Below, one piece after another: positions 16,388 through 53,948 of a DNA stretch of 64,000 bases. The notes under the pieces are model-generated. The model made no database searches. It was not told the origin of the DNA and saw nothing but the letters and a program-made list of their open reading frames with translations. The DNA lies in the NCBI GenBank assembly GCA_030737835.1, contig CM060849.1, positions 26,284,311 through 26,348,310 of the forward strand, written 5' to 3'. Numbering within the stretch: position 1 is the stretch's first letter; every line of letters starts with the position of its first letter. The position numbers and the translations under genes were made by a program. This DNA comes from Acorus gramineus. Lineage: Eukaryota; Streptophyta; Magnoliopsida; Acorales; Acoraceae.

Positions 16388-16469
16388 CACTGAAGGGTAA
16401 CCTCAATTTTTATGCACACCCATTTGGTCACACAAATCCCAACCCCCTTCACAAGTGTTTTATGATAAC

Positions 16470-19400
16470 ATGATGGTGAATAACAAGAAACATCTACTCC
16501 TGATCTTATGGGACATCTTGTTGATCTCGCTTTGTCCATTGTTGGTTGCATCTTCAACACGTGATAACTCCACCGACCTGTCAGCCTTGCTCGCCTTCAA
16601 ATCTCACATCACAGCTGATCCTCGCAGCATCTTAGCTAATACATGGAACCTCAACACCTCCTTCTGTGCTTGGTCTGGTATCTCATGCAGTCCTCAAAGG
16701 CAGCGTGTCACTACTTTGTCACTCCCTGGCTTGTCGCTTGAAGGTGATATTGCTCCTCACATAGGTAACCTCTCCTTCTTATCCATGCTTGATCTCTCAA
16801 GAAGCAAATTGGGTGGTCAAGTGCCGGAGAGTCTGGGAAGTCTGCATCGCCTCAGGTATCTTAACCTATCATTCAACCAGTTATCTGGAAAAATACCACA
16901 CTCTCTCTTTAACATCTCTTCTTTGCAAGTTGTTCGCATGGAACAAAATAACTTGTCTGGACCTATCCCGGCAAACCTCTGCCAAAGCCGGCCTCAACTT
17001 CAAGATCTTACACTCTTTGACAATCAAATTACAGGAAGCATTCCACCCAACATAAAACAATGCCAACACCTTCAGAGGTTATCCCTTTTAAAGAACAAAA
17101 TAACAGGAGAGATACCAAAAGAAATCGGGGAATTAACTGAACTCACATTCCTATCCCTTAGTAGAAACAATCTCACAGGAAGAATACCACCATCTCTAGG
17201 AAACCTTACACTGCTTCAAAATTTCGGCCTTGCATTTAACAACTTGCAGGGAGACATCCCTGACTTGGGTGGTCTCCTTAATCTGCGCAGGTTTGACTTG
17301 GCAGTTAATGAGCTATCAGGCAACCTTCCACCTGAAATTTTCAACCTATCCTTATTAGTGTTTCTACAAGTAGCCAACAATCTACTCTCCGGTCGATTGC
17401 CTGGAGATTCCAGTATCAAGTTACCAAACCTACATGCCCTTCACCTCCAATACAACTTTTTCAATGGAGAGATCCCACCAGCTCTCTTCAACTCTTCAAG
17501 CATAGATCTCATACATCTATGCGACAATCATTTCACCGGGCCTATCCCCACAGGGTTAGGCAGCCTGTCTCTCCTCACTGATTTGAATATTGCACACAAC
17601 AGATTAACCGGAAATATCCCAGCCCATCTCCTGTCAGGTAACTTGACTAGTTTGCTGTCTTTGGAACTGAACGATAACCAACTAACCGGGACCATTCCAC
17701 CTGAAATCATAAGGCTACAGAACCTCCAGGGATTGGATCTTTCACAAAACAAACTCCAAGGAACCATTCCTCATGAACTTCTCCAGATAAAGAACTTGGG
17801 AACACTCCTACTCCATGAAAACATGCTTACAGGATCCATACCCGACCACATCGGGAATATGAGCAGGTTGCGAGTCCTTTCCCTGGCCAGCAATGCTTTA
17901 TCGTCTACAATACCTTTCAGTGTTTGGAGCCTTAAAGATCTCTTGCACCTAAACTTGTCATGGAATTATTTAACAGGGGTACTACCCCGAGAGGTTGGAA
18001 ACCTCAAAGTTTTGGTTAATTTGAGTGTCTCTTCAAACCAGTTATCAGGTGACATTCCAGGGAGTCTAGGGGGACTCGAAATGCTCGCTATTCTTGATTT
18101 ATCAAACAATTCATTCTCCGGAGCCATTCCACAATCGTTCGGTGGACTAATGTCCATGGAGGACATGGATCTCTCTTTCAATGCCCTCTCCGGTGCCATT
18201 CCCAAGTCCTTGGAACTACTTCGGTACGTAAAGCACCTGAATTTTTCCTTCAATAGGTTGGAAGGTCAGATTCCTGCTGGAGCGATATTTGGAAATCTGA
18301 CTGGCCAATCCTTTCTGGGGAACCCTAGTCTATGTGGAGCAACCAAACTGGGTGTTCATCCATGCAAAGCTGATCAGACATCAAGGCGTAGAATGCTTGT
18401 TTTCAAATACATTATTCCTGTCATTTCTTCCATTGTGGTTTTGGCTGTAGTCCTCTTCTTTGTCATGAAGTGCAAGAAGGGGTTCTTTGGTGTCCCCGTG
18501 TTTGCTGATGCCTCAGCAGAGATGACTCAATGCATGCTATCACACCAAGAAATTTTATGTGCCACCGACAACTTCAACGAAGAAAACTTACTTGGCATGG
18601 GGAGCTCTGGTTCTGTCTACAAAGCACGGTTTGATGACGGGACACTCGCAGCCATAAAAGTTCTGAATTTGCAGTCGGAGAGAGCTTCAAAGACGTTCGA
18701 TGCAGAACTCAAAGTTATGCGCATGATTCGCCACAGAAATCTCGTGAAGATCATCAACAGTTGCTCTAGACCAGATTTCAAGGCCCTGATCCTCCAGTTC
18801 ATGCCAAATGGAAGCCTTGAGAAATGGCTGTACTCTGACTCTCATCATTTGTCTCTCCTACAAATATTAAACATAATGTTGGATGTCGCTTCGGCGTTGG
18901 AGTACCTCCACCATGACTGCGTGAAGGCTGTCGTGCACTGTGACCTCAAGCCAAGCAATGTCCTTTTGGATGAAGACATGACGGCACATGTGGGTGACTT
19001 TGGCATCGCAAAACTACTTCATGGGGATAATAAATCCATAACACCCACCAACACTCCTGGAACAATTGGATATGTCGCTCCTGGTACGTATTTACTGATC
19101 TTCACATTATTTTATTATATTGTCACACAGTATGAGAAGATCTAGCTTAAGATTTAATACCTTGTGTTTACTGACGCCTCCTAGAGATCAACCTTAGCAC
19201 CTGTAGATCAATGATGAAAACAAAAATAATAAAAACACTAAATAGAACAAGAGATTTACGTAAATTGACAAATTTGCCTACATCCATGGATATCCTCAAC
19301 CACCCTCACCATGACCACCCTTTTCTCTCAAACCAATCCATATGATTTCATTGCAACACATCACCACATATTTGGTTATTTTGGTTCTTTATGTTTTAAA

Positions 19401-22552: not shown

Positions 22553-25500
22553 ATGATGGGTAACAAGAAACATTGTTTCTTACTCCTATGGTGCATCTTG
22601 TACATCTCACTTTGTCCATGGTTGGTAGCATCTTTAAGACATGATAACTCCACCGACCTGTCAGCCTTGCTCACCTTCAAATCCCACATCACATCCGATC
22701 CACGCAGTATCTTAGCCAACACATGGAACCTAAGCACATCCTTCTGTGCTTGGACAGGCATCTTGTGCAGTCATGGAAGGCAACGTGTCACTGCTTTGAC
22801 ACTGCGTGGCTTATCTCTTGAAGGCGATATTGCTCCTCACATTGGTAACCTCTCCTTCTTATACACACTTGATCTCTCAAGCTGCAGATTGGGTGGCCAA
22901 TTGCCGGAGAGTCTGGGAAGTCTGCACCGCCTCAGGTACCTTAACATATCATTCAACAAGTTATCTGGACAAATACCACTCTCTCTCTTTAACATCTCTT
23001 CTTTGCGATTTGTTCACATGGAACAAAATAACTTGTCTGGACCTATCCCGGCAAACCTCTGCCAAAGCCGGCCTCAACTTCAAGACCTTTCACTCGATGC
23101 CAATCAAATTACAGGAAGCATTCCACCCAACATAAAACAATGCCAACACCTTCAGTGGTTATCTCTTTCACAGAACAAAATCATAGGGGAGATACCAATA
23201 GAAATCGGAGAATTGACCGAGCTCATAGTTTTAGCTCTTGATGAAAACAATCTCACAGGTAGCATACCACCATCTCTAGGCAATCTTACAATGCTCAATT
23301 TTTTCGACCTTGGGTATAACAACTTGCAAGGAAGCATCCCTCAAGAGTTAGGTGGCCACCTTAATTTGCAAGTGTTTAGCTTGGAGTCTAACAAACTATC
23401 AGGCAGCATTCCACCTGAAATTTTCAACCTCTCCTCAATAGTTTTTCTACAAGTAGCCAACAATCTACTCTCCGGTCCATTGCCCGGAGATTCCAGTATC
23501 AAGTTACCGAACCTGCAAGACCTTCTTCTCCAATACAATTTTTTCAATGGAGAGATCCCACCAGCTCTCTTCAACTCTTCAAGCATAGATCTCATACATC
23601 TATGCGATAATCATTTCACCGGGCCTATCCCCACAGGGTTAGGCAGCCTGTCTCTCCTCACTGATTTGAATATTGCAAACAACAGATTAACCGGAAATAT
23701 CCCAGCCCATCTCCTGTCAGGTAACTTGACTAGTTTGTTGTCTTTGGAACTGAACGATAACCAACTAACTGGGACCATTCCACCTGAAATCATAAGGCTA
23801 CAGAACCTCCAGGGATTGGATCTTTCACAAAACAAACTCCAAGGAACCATTCCTCATGAACTTCTCCAGATAAAGAACTTGGGAACACTCCTACTCCATG
23901 AAAACATGCTTACAGGATCCATACCCGACCACATCGGGAATATGAGCGGGTTGCGAGTCCTTTCCCTGGCCAGCAATGCTTTATCGTCCACAATACCTTT
24001 CAGTGTTTGGAGCCTTAAAGATCTCTTGCACCTAAACTTGTCATGGAATTATTTAACAGGGGTACTACCCCGAGAGGTTGGGAACCTCAAAGTCTTGGTT
24101 AATTTGAGTGTCTCTTCAAACCAGTTATCAGGTGACATTCCAGGGAGTCTAGGGGGACTTGAAATGCTCGCTATTCTTGATTTATCAAACAATTCATTCT
24201 CCGGAGCCATTCCACAATCGTTCGGTGGACTAATGTCCATGGAGGACATGGATCTCTCTTTCAATGCCCTCTCCGGTGCCATTCCCAAGTCCTTGGAACT
24301 ACTTCGGTACGTAAAGCACCTGAATTTTTCCTTCAATAGGTTGGAAGGTCAGATTCCTGCTGGAGGGATATTTGGAAATCTGACTGGCCAATCCTTTCTG
24401 GGGAACCCTAGTCTATGTGGAGCAACCAAACTGGGTGTTCATCCATGCAAAGCTGATCAGACATCAAGGCGTAGAATGCTTGTTTTCAAATACATTATTC
24501 CTGTCATTTCTTCCATTGTGGTTTTGGCTGTAGTCCTCTTCTTTGTCATGAAGTGCAAGAAGGGGTTCTTTGGTGTCCCCGTGTTTGCTGATGCCTCAGC
24601 AGAGATGACTCAATGCATGCTATCACACCAAGAAATTTTATGTGCCACCGACAACTTCAACGAAGAAAACTTACTTGGCATGGGGAGCTCTGGTTCTGTC
24701 TACAAAGCACGGTTTGATGACGGGACACTCGCAGCCATAAAAGTTCTGAATTTGCAGTCGGAGAGAGCTTCAAAGACGTTCGATGCAGAACTCAAAGTTA
24801 TGCGCATGATTCGCCACAGAAATCTCGTGAAGATCATCAACAGTTGCTCTAGACCAGATTTCAAGGCCCTGGTCCTCCAGTTCATGCCAAATGGAAGCCT
24901 TGAGAAATGGCTGTACTCTGACTCTCATCATTTGTCTCTCCTACAAATATTAAACATAATGTTGGATGTCGCTTCGGCGTTGGAGTACCTCCACCATGAC
25001 TGCGTGAAGGCTGTCGTGCACTGTGACCTCAAGCCAAGCAATGTCCTTCTTGATGAAGACATGACAGCGCATGTGGGCGACTTCGGCATAGCAAAACTTC
25101 TTCATTGGGACAACAAGTCCATGACACCCACCAACACTCCTGGAACAATTGGGTATGTCGCTCCTGGTATGTATTTACTGGTCTTCACATTATCCACTCT
25201 ATAGTCACACAGTATGAGAAGATCTAGCCTAAGATTTAATACCTTCACTTGCAGACGCCTCCTAGAGATCAACCTTATCAGCTTGTACATCAATGACGGA
25301 AAATAAAACTGATAGACACATCAATAGGACAAGAGATTTACGTGATTTGATAAATTTGTCTACATCCATGGATTCCCGCAACCCCCATTTGGAATCAATT
25401 AAAACGTTTGTTTTTGCAATATCAGTTTTTAAATAATTGGTTCTAACTTCTAAATGAGTAGCTTGAATTTGAACTTTTATTAGTTTCATATTTAGATTTT

Positions 25501-26175
25501 TATGTTATCAAAGTCATAAAAACAACTTTATGAAAAAGCTATGGGTGAGTGGCTTTTCCAAGAATCAATTATTCCGATCAATTTAAAGAATGCGTAGTAA
25601 GATACAAGAAGGAAAAAAATAATATAAAAAAATAATTACCAACAAAAAAAAAAAACTAGGCCCTGAACCCCCACCGCATCCATGTGGATATGTGGGAATA
25701 TGTCCTGTTCGAAATGCAAGACATCTCGCAACAAATTCACTTGCTGCGCTTCATAACAGTTAAGCTAACTGATTTTTTTTCCCTCTTTTTTCTAGAATAT
25801 GGATTGATGGGAAAATTGTCAGCAAGGGGTGATGTCTACAGCTATGGGATATTGTTGCTTGAGACACTGACAAGGAAGAAACCTACAGATGCAATGTTTA
25901 CTGGGGGATTAAACTTGAGGAGATGGGTGGATGAATCATGTCCTGAAGGTGTAAGAGGGGTTGTAGATGAATTCCTTGTGATGGGTGGAGGGGAGAATGG
26001 GGACTATCATGATGGTAATGGAAAGGATGCAGAGAACAAATGCTTGTTGTCACTACTGGAGTTGGGATTGCTTTGTTCAAAGGAGTCCCCTAAAGAGAGG
26101 ATGACTATGAGGCAGGTGGTGGTGAGATTGACCAAGATCAGGATGGATTTCAGCCTCCATTCTCCCAGAGTGTGA
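22553..26175 (+). CDS. LRR receptor-like kinase, subfamily XII type, copy 2
   Basis: Exons 22553-25166 and 25796-26175 give 997 aa; exon 1 is exactly as long as in copy 1 (2614 nt). The architecture is the same: signal peptide, cysteine-paired LRRNT, about 21 LRRs, transmembrane helix near 648-669, and a non-RD kinase with Lys730, HCDLKPSN at 823-830 and DFG at 843-845. The first 330 residues of the ectodomain differ from copy 1 at many LRR surface positions. Residues about 330-832 are nearly identical. The kinase C-terminal lobe in exon 2 again shows scattered changes (TRKKP for TGKKP, ending HSPRV rather than HFPNGSV). A paralogous immune-type receptor is the best reading; the ligand is unknown. 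Divergence focused on the N-terminal LRRs suggests different recognition by the two receptors. Confidence 0.93.
23541..25048 (+). repeat. Near-identical tract shared with receptor kinase 1
   Basis: Partner of 17458-18965 at a constant offset of 6083 bases. It covers LRRs from the middle of the ectodomain through the transmembrane helix to the kinase subdomain VI motif. Confidence 0.85.
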
Positions 26176-38328: not shown

Positions 38329-38334
38329 AAACCC

Positions 38335-38547
38335 TAGATGGAGAAGGGAGCTCCCTTCAGTCCAAGAACAGGAAGCATAGGATCAATTTATCTCCCGCTT
38401 CATTCACTCATTTACCAAGCAAAGCACTCTCTATCAATTCATTAATTCCTTATGTCTCTCTCACTTGGTATTTGAATGAATGAGTCGACAGCTAATTCAA
38501 CCCTATAACCTCCCGTGAGTGGACTGAAGAAAGCTCTCTTTACGTTT
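38335..38547 (-). ncRNA. MIR319: MIR319 precursor
   Basis: The minus strand at 38365-38346 reads TTGGACTGAAGGGAGCTCCC, the exact conserved miR319 sequence, on the 3' arm. The 5' arm at 38536-38517 reads GAGCTTTCTTCAGTCCACTC, the matching miR319 star with a 2-nt offset. The intervening foldback of about 150 nt keeps the second conserved duplex of MIR319 genes (GACTCATTCATTCAAATACC on the 5' side; AAATGAGTGAATGAAGCGGG on the 3' side), which is cut first during loop-to-base processing. miR319 directs cleavage of TCP transcription factor mRNAs and so controls leaf growth and shape. A possible TATA element on this strand lies at about 38668-38684. The transcript ends are not defined. Confidence 0.95.
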
Positions 38548-40655
38548 CAACTTCCGAAACCTCTACATGGAAAAAATCAAATAACAAAATACATCAGTAT
38601 AGACTCACAAATAATTAGATAACACAATCATCCAGAAAATTATTTGTGTGGTTAAAAAACACTCGTTTTATATATATATATAGAAGCCATACAAGGTCGT
38701 CCAAGAATAGTATGTTTGAGTATCTACTCACCCAAAGCAAGAAAATAAATCTGAAAAAAAATTAGGGTTAGAAAAGGATAGTAAAGCTGTAAACCATGAT
38801 AAGATTATTAAGAAGCTAATTTTTGGAACCAAGAGAAATTAAGGAGCTAGAGAAATGGTGAAAAGACACCATGTTCCATAGGTGATACAAAGATAAGGAG
38901 TTTAAGAGATTGAACAACAACAACAACAGAAAATCTAACAAAATTTTTGAAGTAGAGATGAAGAGAGCTTCTCCACTCTCATATGCACAAGAAGGCAGGC
39001 ATATGGATATGAGAATCGATGATGGTCATTATATAGCAAAAGAGAGTGTGAAAGAAAGAGTGGGAGAAGGTGACATAAGGTCTGGCAGTATATCTGGCAG
39101 AAAAGAGAAGAAAAGAATGAAAAAGAAAAGAAGAAGAGAGAGAGAGAGAATGAGAGGTGAAAAACATGACAGAAAGGCAGGGTATTTCTCTTTAAGAAAT
39201 ACTTAACAAACATGAGCATTTATTCAAAGTTCTGTGTCACATACACACATTGCGGGGCATTGGCTAGTCTGCCGGTCTCTCGTTTTATTCCCACTAAAAC
39301 AGTTTAATTAATAATTAATATGAGTTGGTTGGTTTGTTCAGTTTTTGGTTTTTTATTCCCATCCACAAACCATTTGGTTGGGGAAGTTATTCCGGATTAG
39401 CTTTAATTTGACACATATGGGAAGCTTGCTTTAAATGTTATGTTCTCATTAATTGGCTTTTTTTATGACACTTTTTCCTTATTTGGACAAGAGATTCTCT
39501 ATGGTCTCTTGTTCTGTGAAAGCACAAGATTAATTGATTTTTTTGCAATTAGTGGATGCATGAGACAATAAATAAAGTGTTGGACTTAAGGACTTGATTC
39601 CATTTAAGTGTAATTAATCTCCATAAAAAAAATATCAAATTCTTCAATATACAGTGGACTAAACTATTAATAATTTGTTTATTTGGAATACATACAAGAG
39701 TTTTTCAAGGCGAACTTATTATATATATGGCTAACAAGAAATTGTGCGAACCGAGTTTTATTTAAATCGGCAATCACATCTCATCTCTGTGAAAGATGTC
39801 AAGGGATTAAATGCTACAGAATATCATTCCTTTAAAAAAAAAAAACAAGACACTCGACTCCAACTACTGAAGCAAGAAAGATAAATGTATTTAACAGGTT
39901 TTAAAAGCAAATTTTCAGGAAACACATTTTTCTTTGATCTCATAATGTTTTTTTATAACTAAAACTAAAATTATTTCATCTTTCATCAAAAAAATTGGAA
40001 CAATTAGAGATCAGAATTTGAAAATGAGTTTGGATCCTACAAAATTAAAATATTCAAAAGTTGCATTTTCTAAATTTTGTTTTCAAATGCTACTTAAGTA
40101 TGTGTTTGATGAGAAGTTTGGCAAGACTTTAATTGAAAACGTAATAATAAAAAAAAAATTTCAATTTGAGAATATGTGCGAAATCAATTGAGTTCATATC
40201 ATTATGTGGTTCATCTCCTATGACTATCCACTGAGAAATGAATATATTATAACACAATGCATGGAGAGTTAATTGTGTACGTCGCACAATTTGATACACA
40301 ATGTATACATCTTTTTAAGTGATACATTGTATTATTTTGAAATAACTGTGTTTATTTAACTTATTGTATAAGTTGCCGTTGGATTGTGAAGGTTCATCGT
40401 TTTTTATATTTTCAACATCCTTTGTTGCATACATTTCCAACTCCATTTAGTAGACATATTTAATTTTTCAATGAGGTTTAAGAATCTAATTTATGATTGA
40501 GTAAGAGAGGGTTCTCATTCTCTATCTATAAAAGAAGTGGGATCACATTTAATTCATTTCTTATTTCTCACAATTGCTTAGTTTGCACAATGAAGTAATA
40601 TATCCTGTAGAGAGAGATAAGAGAGGAAAGAATCATTAATTTTAAATATCAGGAT
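38548..40655. other. Upstream region of MIR319 and intergenic DNA
   Basis: Likely promoter DNA of MIR319 in its left part, then AT-rich sequence. Several GA-rich frames at 38910-39206 are low-complexity and unconvincing. No gene is supported. Confidence 0.45.
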
Positions 40656-50280: not shown

Positions 50281-50925
50281 GTATAACAAAGCTCTTTATA
50301 ATGCCATAGAAAATGTTCTCAGCAATTCCAATATGCTTTTGGAACCGTTTTTTACGGGTATAAATTTGTTTAATAAAATATACACATTTACAAAATAAAA
50401 TAAAATTATACACTCAAATTAATTGAGTTTGCTTTTTTTTGTACTTTTTTTACCAATGTATAACATAATTATACATGACAGAGAAGAATAATACATGTTC
50501 GTTAAGAGAAATCCTATTTAGATCAGTATCACATAAATGATTATAAAAATGAGTGTATCAGCTATCCTATAGTGCAATTGATGGTTCAATATAAACCAGA
50601 ATTTTACCTTCAATAAAATTTCCAATGACCAGAATCATTTTATCAAAACCTTATTTTGAACCACATACCAAAAAAAAGAAAAAAAAATTGGGATAGATTT
50701 TTTGGTCTGAAAAATAAAAAGAACATAGAAAACGATGTCTATTTCTTTGTGCAGCCTCAATTACAACTCACACCGGTTCTCTTTCTTTTTAAATTTAAAA
50801 ATTATACATTCTCTTATTGAAGTACATGTTATTATATGAAATAAAGTATATATATATATATATATTGAGATGCATTAGTATATTTTTTTCGTTTTATAAA
50901 AATATTTATTTTTTACGTTATACAC
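50281..50925. other. AT-rich intergenic DNA
   Basis: An (AT)n run at about 50846-50866; nothing else is supportable. Confidence 0.5.
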
Positions 50926-51115
50926 TGTTAAAGAATCATTATTAGGATAATATTATATCTTTATTATTATTATTGTGATATTATTAGTTATTATTAGTTT
51001 CCTAGATTTCCTAGATTCCTTATCTTGTATTTAGGGTTTCCTCTATGTATCTATAAATAGAGCCCTTTGACTCCTCTAATATAATAACAATAATTCCATT
51101 TTCTTTATTCTAACA
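50926..51115 (+). repeat. 5' LTR of the cargo-carrying element
   Basis: 190 bp with TGTT..AACA ends. It contains TATAAATAG (about 51051-51059), a likely TATA box that falls within the part lost from the right LTR. Confidence 0.85.
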
Positions 51116-51296
51116 TGGTATCAGAACCACCTTAGAAACCCTAGATCTATAAAAGTTTTTCTTCCTTCTTCCTGGCTCCAATTGAGATGTCTTCAATCGG
51201 AGCGGGGGAAGACTTTTATTCGCGAGTTCGCCGTCCGTCGCTTTGACTGTATCGCCTCCGCGCCCCTGTGCCGCTGCACCTGTCGCAGCCCCACCG

Positions 51297-51533
51297 CTGC
51301 CTTGTGGGCTTCATCAATAAATCTGTGTGCTCCTGGAATGGTGACTTAGAGAAGCGCATCTCCGTCCAAAGACCCGGAGTCAGGAAGCCATAAGTCTTCA
51401 TGAGGCAGTCAAACGTAGCCTTCACAAAGTTCCCAAGTGCCTTGGTCGACCCACGCGAAGAAGTGAACACGTCCTCGATCCCTGCGGACTGCAGCACCTT
51501 CTTTGGCACCCTCGCCGCCACGATCCCAGATCC
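51297..51533 (-). pseudogene. RPS2: Captured fragment of ribosomal protein uS5 (RPS2) gene, antisense
   Basis: Minus-strand translation gives about 79 residues that align without a gap to the C-terminal region of eukaryotic 40S ribosomal protein S2 (uS5): [40 protein letters not shown] and [13 protein letters not shown], then [12 protein letters not shown]. The normal protein sits at the small-subunit mRNA entry and decoding area. Here only the C-terminal part is present, without the uS5 N-terminal domain or native start, so it is not a working gene. It lies inside the LTR element, opposite to the element's own direction. Transduplication is the simplest explanation. Confidence 0.88.
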
Positions 51534-51537
51534 ACGC

Positions 51538-51631
51538 CGATCTGGAAGACGTAGTCGTCGCCGAAGTTGGTCTTGATGGTATTCTTGATTGCGAGGTGCT
51601 TCGTGGACGGCGGGGACGACTCCGTCTCCAT
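51538..51631 (-). pseudogene. Second captured gene-like fragment, unidentified
   Basis: Directly upstream of the uS5 piece on the same strand but in another frame, the translation reads [18 protein letters not shown] followed by YVFQI. It has the composition of a conserved protein and a sharp junction with the uS5 piece at about 51535. I do not recognise the source gene; it may be an exon from a second host locus. Confidence 0.4.
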
Positions 51632-52267
51632 CCGACGATCGAAGGATCTCGTCCTTCACGGCTTCCGCGCAGAGTCCACAGATCCAACAGCCGAGCCTTG
51701 ATGCACCTCCGCGCATCTCTGCGCCCTCCTCGTGCCTCTGCGTGTCTACTTGTGCCAGCTGCCCACACGATCCCCACATCCGTGCGATCTGCCATTGCTC
51801 CTCCATGCGCGTAGCGTCAACCCGCGCACATGATCTCGTGATCTCTGCAAGCTCTGTCTCCGTGGTCGCCGTGCCTCCGCATGCGATGCTCCTGCTTTCT
51901 GTTGAACTCGACGCCGCAATCGAACGCGTGACTTCCGCCTTCATATCCCAACATTAGCGCTTCAACCTCAGCCCATTCGAGCGCTTCAAGCCCTCTGCGT
52001 CTTCCGGTCGACTACCATGCGTGCATGCCATGCGAATCTCGGCATAAATCACACGCCCGTCTCCGCAATGTCCATATTTCTTGTTTGCCAACTCACGCAA
52101 GATCAGCTAGATCTATGCTTGCACCACGACCGTGCCTCTTGCCTCCTCCACGACTCGACACACGAGCATCATCCACCGCACGCGCAGAACCACAAACTAC
52201 TCCTCCGCGGGCACCGACATGTCCGATTCAATTCATGGACTTCCTGCAGAGCATCATGTACATAGGC

Positions 52268-53137
52268 CTTTGCCGTCGTGCCCTTGCCGTCGTCGTCATG
52301 CCCTTACCGTCGTGCCCTTGCCGTCGCGCGTCGTGCCCTTGCCGTCGCCGTCGTGCCCTTGCCGCCGTCGTCGTGCCCTTGCCGTCGTCGTGCCCGTGTC
52401 TTTGCCGTCGTCGTCGTGCCCTTGCCGTCGCTGTTGCCGTCGTGCCCTTGCGTCGCCGTCGTGCCCTTGCCGTCGCTGTTGTCGTCGTGCTCTTGCCGCC
52501 GCCGTCGTGCCCTTGCCGTCGCCGTCGTGCCCTTGCCGTCGCCGTCGTGCCCTTTGCCGTCGTCGTCGCCGTCGTGCCCTTGCCGTCGCCGTCGTGCCCT
52601 TTGCCGTCGTCGTCGCCGTCGTGCCCTTGCCGTCGCCGTCATGCCTTTGCCGTCGTGCCCTTGCCGTCACCGTCGTCGTCGTGCCCTTGCCGTCGCTGTT
52701 GCCGTCGTGCCCTTGCCGTCGTCGTCGTCGTCGTGCCCTTGTCGTCGTGTCCGTGTCTTTGCCGTCGCCGTCGCCGTCGCCGTCGTGCCCTTGCCGTCGT
52801 CGTGCCCTTGCCGTCGTCGTCGCCGTCGTGCCCTTGCCGTCGCTGTTGTCGTCGTGCTCTTGCCGTCGCTGTTGTCGTCGTGCCCTTGCCGTCGCCGTCG
52901 TGCCCTTTGCCGTCGCTGTTGTCGTCGTGCCCTTGCCGTCGCCGTCGTGCCCTTTGCCGTCGTCGTGCCCTTGCCGTCGCTGTTGTCGTCGTGCCCTTGC
53001 CGTCGCTGTTGTCGTCGTGCCCTTGCCGTCGCCGTCGTGCCCTTGCCGTCGTCGTCGCCGTCGTGCCCTTGCCGTCGTCGTGCCCGTGTCTTTGCCGTCG
53101 TCGTGCCCTTGCCGTCGCCGTCGCCGTCGTCGTCGTA
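52268..53137. repeat. GC-rich minisatellite of CCCTTGCCGTCG-based units
   Basis: About 870 bp are built from CCCTTGCCGTCG plus variable numbers of CCGTCG, TCGTCG or CTGTTG hexamers and GTG. Typical spacings from CCCTT to CCCTT are 17, 20, 23 and 26 bp, all leaving remainder 2 when divided by 3. Each unit therefore shifts frame, and all three forward frames and some reverse ones stay open. The long frames here are artefacts of composition, not proteins. Confidence 0.9.
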
Positions 53138-53320
53138 CCCTACCGACAGACGTGCCTCTATTGCGCCCCTGCTGCGCATGCACGCACCCCTGCCGCTTGC
53201 AGCACCCTTGCCGTGTTGTGCCATGCACCACCCTGTCGCCCGTAGCTGTCGCAAGCCTCTGCCACCTTCTCATTTTTGTGCAAACTCTAAGGGTTCTACC
53301 TTTCAGAGTTTGGGAGGGGG

Positions 53321-53462
53321 TGTTAAAGAATCATTATTAGGATAATATTATATCTTTATTATCATTATTGTGATATTATTAGTTATTATTAGTTTCCTAG
53401 ATTTCCTAGATTCCTTATCTTGTATTTTAGGGTTTCCTCTATGTATCTATAATAAAATCCCA
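53321..53462 (+). repeat. 3' LTR of the cargo-carrying element, internally shortened
   Basis: Matches the left LTR from TGTTAAAGAATC to CTATGTATCTATAA, then ends TAAAATCCCA, missing about 50 bases including the TATAAATAG region. Confidence 0.75.
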
Positions 53463-53948
53463 TACACTATGATATAATGATAGCGTTGTAGTGTAATGTA
53501 TAGAACTACAGACTAAGCTACAAAACGAAGTGTATGTATCAACGCTAAAAGAACATATATTAACAATACATTTCTCCATTTGAAGTAAAATAGCTATTCG
53601 GTTTGCCTTTTAATGTGAAGCGTCAACGGATGGAACTAGGATTATATATACATTCATTATTTCAAATCTTTTGGAGATTCAATATAATACAAATAAAATT
53701 AGAGGACCAAAAAAATAATTTAGAGGAGGAATTCGACCGTTGGCCCAATTTTGTTATGATCGATGTTTCCAAAAAGACAAAAACACAAAAAGATTCTCAT
53801 ATTCAAAACATTAAATATTAAAAGATACCCATAAGTGTCACTAACTTCAATAACCTTCACGCGCCTAAAATAGAAGAAAAAAAAATCCATTCAAAATCTT
53901 TCCTTCATTTCACATCAATTTTTTTTTGCAATTTATAGCCTGTCACGC
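53463..53948. other. Intergenic, no gene seen
   Basis: AT-rich; the 60 bases before the TATA box below may be promoter. Confidence 0.5.

What the first reader, a model, noticed from the sequence alone, without database searches (positions are those of the whole stretch)
50926..53462. Copia-like element carrying an antisense piece of a ribosomal protein gene
The LTRs, a Met-tRNA-type primer-binding site, a polypurine tract and a TACAC target duplication define a 2.5-kb retroelement with no recognisable gag or pol. Its interior holds the C-terminal part of 40S protein uS5 (RPS2) in reverse orientation. If transcribed from the LTR, the RNA would be antisense to a host ribosomal mRNA, so small-RNA or antisense effects are conceivable. 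Presence of the parts is seen directly; any regulatory effect is inference.
Basis: partly seen in the sequence, partly recalled or inferred. Interest (0 to 1): 0.85.

Follow-up and report, generated by a model that had tools for sequence, protein, structure and literature searches.

The report
mRNA-capturing retroelement in Acorus gramineus
A small jumping element in the plant Acorus carries pieces of three of the plant's own genes, at least one copied from a spliced message, and related copies elsewhere in the genome carry pieces of other genes in either direction, so it belongs to a family that repeatedly picks up host messages.

Summary
Window 50926-53462 is a 2,537-nt LTR retroelement of Acorus gramineus with an antisense piece of the 40S protein uS5 (RPS2) gene.

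The tools add four things. (1) Two further host-gene pieces lie beside it, also antisense: 94 nt of a WD40-protein gene and 64 nt of a DUF1677 gene. (2) The RPS2 piece matches one host gene at 228 of 234 nt and lacks that gene's 3,038-bp intron, so it came from spliced RNA. (3) The element is one copy of a large non-autonomous family (973 first-look candidates, 40 scored); its interior joins segments found in different relatives. (4) Relatives carry other host-gene pieces in both orientations; all five donors that could be tested had lost their introns, nine in all.

Most likely: mRNAs are captured by template switching during reverse transcription, then amplified as passengers. Antisense is not a family rule (9 antisense, 3 sense, p = 0.15), so an evolved antisense function is unlikely. 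No RNA data were available.

Gene-transducing LTR elements are known (maize Bs1, soybean GmaRetroS15); repeated multi-gene, two-way capture by one family looks like a new variant.

The parts
50921..50925 (.). possible target-site duplication TACAC, left copy (right copy 53463-53467)
   Evidence: chance 1-4% for this copy alone
50926..51115 (+). 5' LTR, 190 nt, TGTTA...TAACA
   Evidence: family ends
51116..51128 (+). primer-binding site TGGTATCAGAACC (initiator tRNA-Met type, recalled)
51129..51218 (+). leader shared by the family; most copies scored stop matching here
51302..51537 (-). antisense piece of the host RPS2 (uS5) gene, intron removed
51538..51631 (-). antisense piece of exon 1 of a host WD40-protein gene
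51632..51695 (-). antisense piece of a host DUF1677 gene
51216..51944 (-). 242-residue open frame through the DUF1677 and RPS2 pieces; its last 166 residues are database protein P0001
51694..52269 (+). module shared at 94-98% with four copies that show no RPS2 match
52274..53141 (+). GC-rich minisatellite, 20/26-nt units
53307..53320 (+). polypurine tract AGTTTGGGAGGGGG
53321..53452 (+). 3' LTR, cut short: R-U5 end missing
53453..53462 (+). 10 nt that matched no locus held
53463..53467 (.). possible target-site duplication TACAC, right copy

Best explanation
It is a copy of a large, non-autonomous LTR retroelement family of Acorus gramineus whose interiors contain host mRNA copies. Shown: LTRs, PBS and PPT; three antisense host-gene pieces in this copy; absence of a host intron from the RPS2 piece; relatives with other spliced host pieces in both orientations; an interior that joins segments found in different relatives; nearly identical chimeric cargo at three places in the genome. 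Inferred: enzymes are supplied in trans by an autonomous element; host mRNAs enter the particle; reverse transcriptase jumps between element RNA, other element copies and host mRNAs. A jump onto mRNA during minus-strand synthesis gives a sense piece; a jump onto mRNA during plus-strand synthesis, or use of a host cDNA as template, gives an antisense piece. The cargo then spreads as a passenger. In this lineage RPS2 and DUF1677 came first, and the WD40 piece was added later on the line to the window copy, replacing the DUF1677-RPS2 joint.
For: RPS2 piece 228 of 234 nt identical to gene C7:3844663-3848522 with its 3,038-bp intron absent. Other spliced donors: HSP70 (674-bp intron absent) and H2A (73 bp), antisense; Bax-inhibitor gene, five exons with four introns absent, sense; RNA-cyclase gene, introns of 522 and 81 bp absent, sense; lengths. 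The four RPS2-bearing copies found (16 of 16 candidates scored) share 179C>T against the host gene, and three share the leader-side joint. The only WD40 match above 80% identity outside the host gene is the window copy. Mosaic: element 294-611 closest to the C10 and C7 copies, 614-706 only to the WD40 gene, 707-768 to the C7 and C2 copies, 769-1344 to L057-L060, 2151-2527 to the common subfamily (against loci held). HSP70-H2A cargo: 1,304 bp printed as 100% identical at two places and 1,085 bp at a third (rounded; bit scores show a few differences).
Against: Antisense pieces are the majority of those counted (9 of 12), which simple minus-strand switching does not predict. No autonomous partner was found, and none was searched for directly. 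No transcript, particle or small-RNA data. Some joints show little or no microhomology, which also fits end-joining of cDNA pieces into genomic copies. The WD40 and DUF1677 pieces lie within single exons and say nothing about splicing. 9 of 16 copies scored have no exact 5-bp duplication.
Confidence: 0.7

Rival explanations
1. Break-repair filler: cDNA pieces of host mRNAs were joined into breaks in integrated copies of the element by end-joining, and the altered copies were then transcribed and amplified.
For: Explains both orientations, blunt or short-overlap joints and spliced donors.
Against: Needs many independent break events in one family; segments swapped between copies are more simply explained by jumps between co-packaged RNAs.
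Confidence: 0.2
2. LINE-type retropseudogenes: processed gene copies were inserted into the element by LINE machinery and later amplified with it.
For: Spliced donors; a T14 tract beside one RPS2 piece in L047.
Against: RPS2, WD40 and DUF1677 pieces are internal or 5' fragments without 3' ends or poly(A) at the joints seen in the window copy; two or three genes per element in at least six copies.
Confidence: 0.07
3. One reading: the LTR transcript makes antisense or small RNA that controls RPS2.
For: 234 nt at 97.4% identity in antisense could base-pair with the mRNA.
Against: No RNA data; relatives carry sense pieces too; WD40 is present in one copy only; no sign of constraint.
Confidence: 0.03
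4. A DNA transposon such as a Pack-MULE or Helitron carrying gene pieces landed in the element.
For: GC-rich gene pieces clustered in one place.
Against: Introns absent in all five donors tested; no terminal inverted repeat pair around the pieces.
Confidence: 0.01

Closest known systems
GmaRetroS15 and other gene-bearing TRIMs of soybean and Medicago (PMC4717578, section 13 read)
   Same: Small non-autonomous LTR elements with host exon pieces and no introns; GmaRetroS15 holds pieces of three genes; 5-bp target duplications.
   Different: Those are 1.2-1.4 kb, 30 elements in seven subfamilies. The Acorus copies measured are 1.2-3.2 kb, with a GC-rich minisatellite and several different cargos in one family.
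Bs1 of maize (review PMC13317346, passages; original papers not read)
   Same: LTR element carrying pieces of three host genes that form a chimeric frame.
   Different: One gene combination rather than many. A gag-related part, recalled for Bs1, was not found here.
Gene-fragment-bearing LTR retrotransposons of maize B73 (PMC2774510, passages)
   Same: 425 intact elements with gene pieces from at least 189 captures.
   Different: That survey found no single element with pieces of more than one standard nuclear gene; here at least six copies carry pieces of two or three.
Template-switch complexes, VejuL and BARE2 of Triticeae (PMC1950507, passages)
   Same: Jumps between RNAs during reverse transcription create chimeric elements.
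   Different: The complexes described join two element RNAs; here host mRNAs appear to be joined as well.
Antisense additional ORFs such as in maize Grande or Silene Retand (PMC7264820, passages)
   Same: Reading frame antisense to the LTR.
   Different: Those ORFs have no clear match to other proteins; the same paper says transduced genes are usually in the sense of gag-pol.

Membership tests
LTR retrotransposon (non-autonomous) | paired direct LTRs with TG...CA ends | tested here: met
   132 columns at 98.5%; 5' LTR TGTTA...TAACA; the 3' LTR of this copy is cut short; 15 of 16 copies scored have TGTTA...TAACA
LTR retrotransposon (non-autonomous) | PBS after the 5' LTR and PPT before the 3' LTR | tested here: met
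   PBS TGGTATCAGAGCC in 14 of 16 copies scored
LTR retrotransposon (non-autonomous) | target-site duplication | tested here: inconclusive
   this copy TACAC, chance 1-4%; family 7 of 16 exact
Ty1/copia superfamily | copia-order pol, or an autonomous partner with the same LTR | not tested
   no pol domain in the frames scanned; no search for a partner was made; PBS, LTR ends and duplication size only suggest copia
TRIM | very short element without coding region (gene-bearing TRIMs in PMC4717578 are 1.2-1.4 kb) | tested here: not met
   LTR size fits, but this copy is 2,537 nt; copies scored 1,193-3,195 nt
Bs1-type gene-transducing LTR element | host exon pieces without introns between LTRs | tested here: met
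Bs1-type gene-transducing LTR element | retained gag-related region (recalled) | tested here: not met
   no gag or pol family among hits of 247 interior ORFs or 12 window frames
Pack-MULE | terminal inverted repeats; genomic pieces with introns | tested here: not met
   no matching inverted pair; introns absent

The most novel reading that the evidence does not exclude
The family is a standing sampler of the host transcriptome. Its particles take up host mRNAs so readily, and its replication jumps templates so freely on both DNA strands, that its copies become shuffled libraries of spliced host exons in either orientation; exons are inserted, swapped between copies by recombination and spread within the last one or two million years. 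Antisense pieces would be a direct trace of plus-strand synthesis on mRNA templates, a route not described in the passages read here.
Probability: 0.3. Interest if true: 0.8.

Novelty: new variant of a known kind. Interest (0 to 1): 0.62.

Why it matters
How LTR elements pick up host genes is known from few worked cases, and transduced genes are said to be usually in sense (PMC7264820, passages). One young family with several different spliced cargos, shared joints and nested stages would let the steps of capture (entry, jump point, orientation, swapping between copies) be read from sequence. It also warns annotators: one copy is in the databases as '40S ribosomal protein S2-4' (P0002).

Tried and rejected
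Rejected: a nested Pack-MULE or Helitron (spliced donors; no matching inverted repeats). Rejected: antisense orientation as a family rule (9 antisense and 3 sense among 12 donor pieces with inside support, binomial p = 0.146). Dropped before that count: a kinase hit in L064 (not shown to lie inside the element); Serinc and a reductase-like piece in L021 (far LTR not held); Nop52 (not placed); PF10712 (taken, from recall, as an antisense artefact of HSP70); FGGY_C (weak, same frame as HSP70). H2B in L037 was kept although its Pfam score, 22.7, is below the cut-off of 26.4. I first read an 8-nt overlap at the WD40-RPS2 joint as microhomology (note); the host sequences show essentially none. ORF sets were thinned before the Pfam scan: 151 to 110 antisense and 185 to 137 sense; some ORFs in loci whose far LTR was not held may lie outside the element. 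Rfam gave one match in the element, below its gathering score, E 0.062. Copy number is not known: two pattern counts of LTR joints did not complete.

Full report
Where it lies. The window is G000:C3:26284311-26348310 of a 398.6-Mb assembly. Contig lengths of 24,737,384, 13,876,118 and 32,950,433 equal those of the contigs of database proteins labelled Acorus gramineus (P0002 and P0005; P0122), so the organism is A. gramineus. A published assembly of that species has 399.8 Mb (PMC10281966, passages).

The element. The 5' LTR is 50926-51115, followed by a PBS, a leader to about 51218, a GC-rich interior, a minisatellite of 20/26-nt units at 52274-53141, a PPT at 53307-53320 and a 3' LTR at 53321-53452 that lacks its R-U5 end and is followed by 10 nt that matched no locus held. 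One substitution and one indel separate the shared 130 LTR positions. At 1.3e-8 per site per year (recalled rate) this is about 0.3 My, 95% range 0.01-1.6 My, for the shared part only. The 3' LTR part is identical over 132 nt to 5' LTRs of at least five other copies (L010, L011, L012, L017, L021).

Host pieces in the window copy. On the minus strand, in the order DUF1677, WD40, RPS2: (a) 51632-51695, 62 of 64 nt identical to the DUF1677 gene at C1:6457603, which matches without a break; (b) 51538-51631, 91 of the 93 nt compared identical to exon 1 of a WD40-protein gene at C2:19774000, related to A. calamus P0121; (c) 51302-51537, RPS2, 228 of the 234 nt compared identical to the gene at C7:3844663-3848522. 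The host reads GTGAAG, then a 3,038-bp intron starting GTATAATG and ending TTTCAG, then GCTACG; the element reads through without it. The six differences are four nonsynonymous and two synonymous. Under assumed rates (1.3e-8 for the element, half that for the gene, both recalled or assumed) the three pieces give 1.1-1.6 My; the error is large.

Relatives with RPS2. A protein search (16 of 16 candidates scored) found three further copies: C7:18494k (L049, the contig and match of annotated protein P0002), C10:9363k (L050) and C2:2734k (L047). All four share 179C>T; window, L049 and L050 share 135G>C and the leader-side joint; L047 ends its RPS2 piece earlier. L047 has the longest DUF1677 and RPS2 pieces, separated by short filler and a T14 tract; L049 joins DUF1677 to RPS2 within a GCGGCG overlap; L050 lacks DUF1677; the window copy alone has WD40 at that place. 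L047, L049 and L050 also carry an aldolase piece in sense orientation. Sites 97 and 144 of the RPS2 piece show all four combinations among the four copies, which suggests recombination or recurrent change.

Mosaic. In 110-nt steps against the loci held, the closest copies change along the element: the common subfamily for LTR and leader, L050/L049 for 294-611, the host WD40 gene for 614-706, L049/L047 for 707-768, L057-L060 for 769-1344, and L002-L008 and other common copies for 2151-2527 (best 96-100%); the minisatellite was not profiled. The module 769-1344 occurs at 94-98% in four copies without an RPS2 match in the DNA held.

The family. A search with LTR and leader gave 973 first-look candidates, of which 40 were scored (41 match rows), so the copy number is not known. 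Of 23 copies examined, both full LTRs could be placed in 16: 7 of 16 have an exact 5-bp duplication, 15 have TGTTA...TAACA ends, 14 have the PBS TGGTATCAGAGCC; lengths are 1,193-3,195 nt. ORFs of at least 60 residues from interiors of 41 loci (40 distinct copies, since L034 picked up the copy of L013) were scanned with Pfam: 110 antisense ORFs gave 16 families, 137 sense ORFs gave six. Checked one by one: HSP70 E 2.9e-75 and histone (H2A by eye) in L010, I29 propeptide in L015, EF-hand in L012 and L021, F-box in L018, histone (H2B by eye, below the cut-off) in L037, all antisense; Bax1-inhibitor E 1.8e-31 in L011, sense; two of the ten frames, L015:832-1413 and L021:238-660, had no family. An RNA-cyclase piece in L017 and the aldolase piece in L049 are sense; I assigned these two Pfam hits to their loci by reading the translations, and one search confirmed the cyclase donor. 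With tblastn to relatives, at least 11 of the 41 loci hold a recognisable host piece between family landmarks: L010, L011, L012, L015, L017, L018, L022, L023, L028, L037, L049. The share may be higher, because Pfam misses pieces without a domain. At least six copies (window, L047, L049, L050, L010, L017) carry pieces of two or three genes.

Splicing test. All five donors with an informative intron had lost it: RPS2 (1 intron), HSP70 (1), H2A (1), Bax-inhibitor (4), RNA-cyclase (2), nine in all (lengths). Three of these pieces are antisense and two sense. The HSP70-H2A cargo is printed as 100% identical over 1,304 bp at two places and over 1,085 bp at a third; the bit scores show a few differences. 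Chimeric elements have therefore moved recently as units.

Mechanism. Spliced donors require an RNA stage. Two or three pieces per element, direct joints and mixing among copies fit template switching inside particles, as proposed for Triticeae elements (PMC1950507, passages). A jump during minus-strand synthesis yields sense cargo; antisense cargo needs a jump in plus-strand synthesis, an antisense template, or end-joining of cDNA. The present data do not separate these.

Prior work. Gene-bearing TRIMs with exon-only pieces, including a three-gene case, are described in soybean (PMC4717578, section 13 read). The maize survey found no element with more than one standard nuclear gene (PMC2774510, passages); rice and sorghum LTR elements with captured genes are counted in PMC3726574 (passages). 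Transduced genes are said to be usually in sense (PMC7264820, passages). Searches of the held library with Acorus, LTR retrotransposon and gene-capture terms and with general capture terms listed no report of this family; passages of the two Acorus genome papers mention LTR elements only in general. Most subscription papers are not held.

Noticed in passing
window 38334-38548, minus strand: MIR159 microRNA precursor, Rfam RF00638, 147.9 bits.
   Followed up: no
window 16455-19145 and 22553-25204: Two long, closely similar leucine-rich-repeat receptor-kinase reading frames in tandem; a kinase end lies at 25684-26175 (read by eye).
   Followed up: no
L010 3-1306 (G000:C32:8261056-8262359); also C5:21935343-21936646 and C11:983577-984661: A spliced HSP70-H2A chimera, nearly identical at three places (full length at two), with a further 110-nt piece matching C3:19105415 at 96% between the two genes.
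   Followed up: partly
L011 2440-3200 (G000:C9:4320968-4321728) and C66:214039-214790: Sense copy of a Bax-inhibitor gene covering five exons, 97-99% identical to the host gene; its first 143 nt also match just upstream at C9:4320804 and at C32:5856752.
   Followed up: partly
L047 about 1488-1502: A T tract between the DUF1677 and RPS2 pieces, that is poly(A) in LTR sense; possibly a trace of a poly(A) tail.
   Followed up: no
window 51216-51716, minus strand; G000:C7:18494k: Reading frames inside these elements are in the protein database; P0002 is named 40S ribosomal protein S2-4 and has the same Pfam pair as P0001 from the window, probably annotation artefacts.
   Followed up: yes
window 51694-52269: Module of unknown origin; parts of it recur in other family copies at 78-95% identity.
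   Followed up: partly
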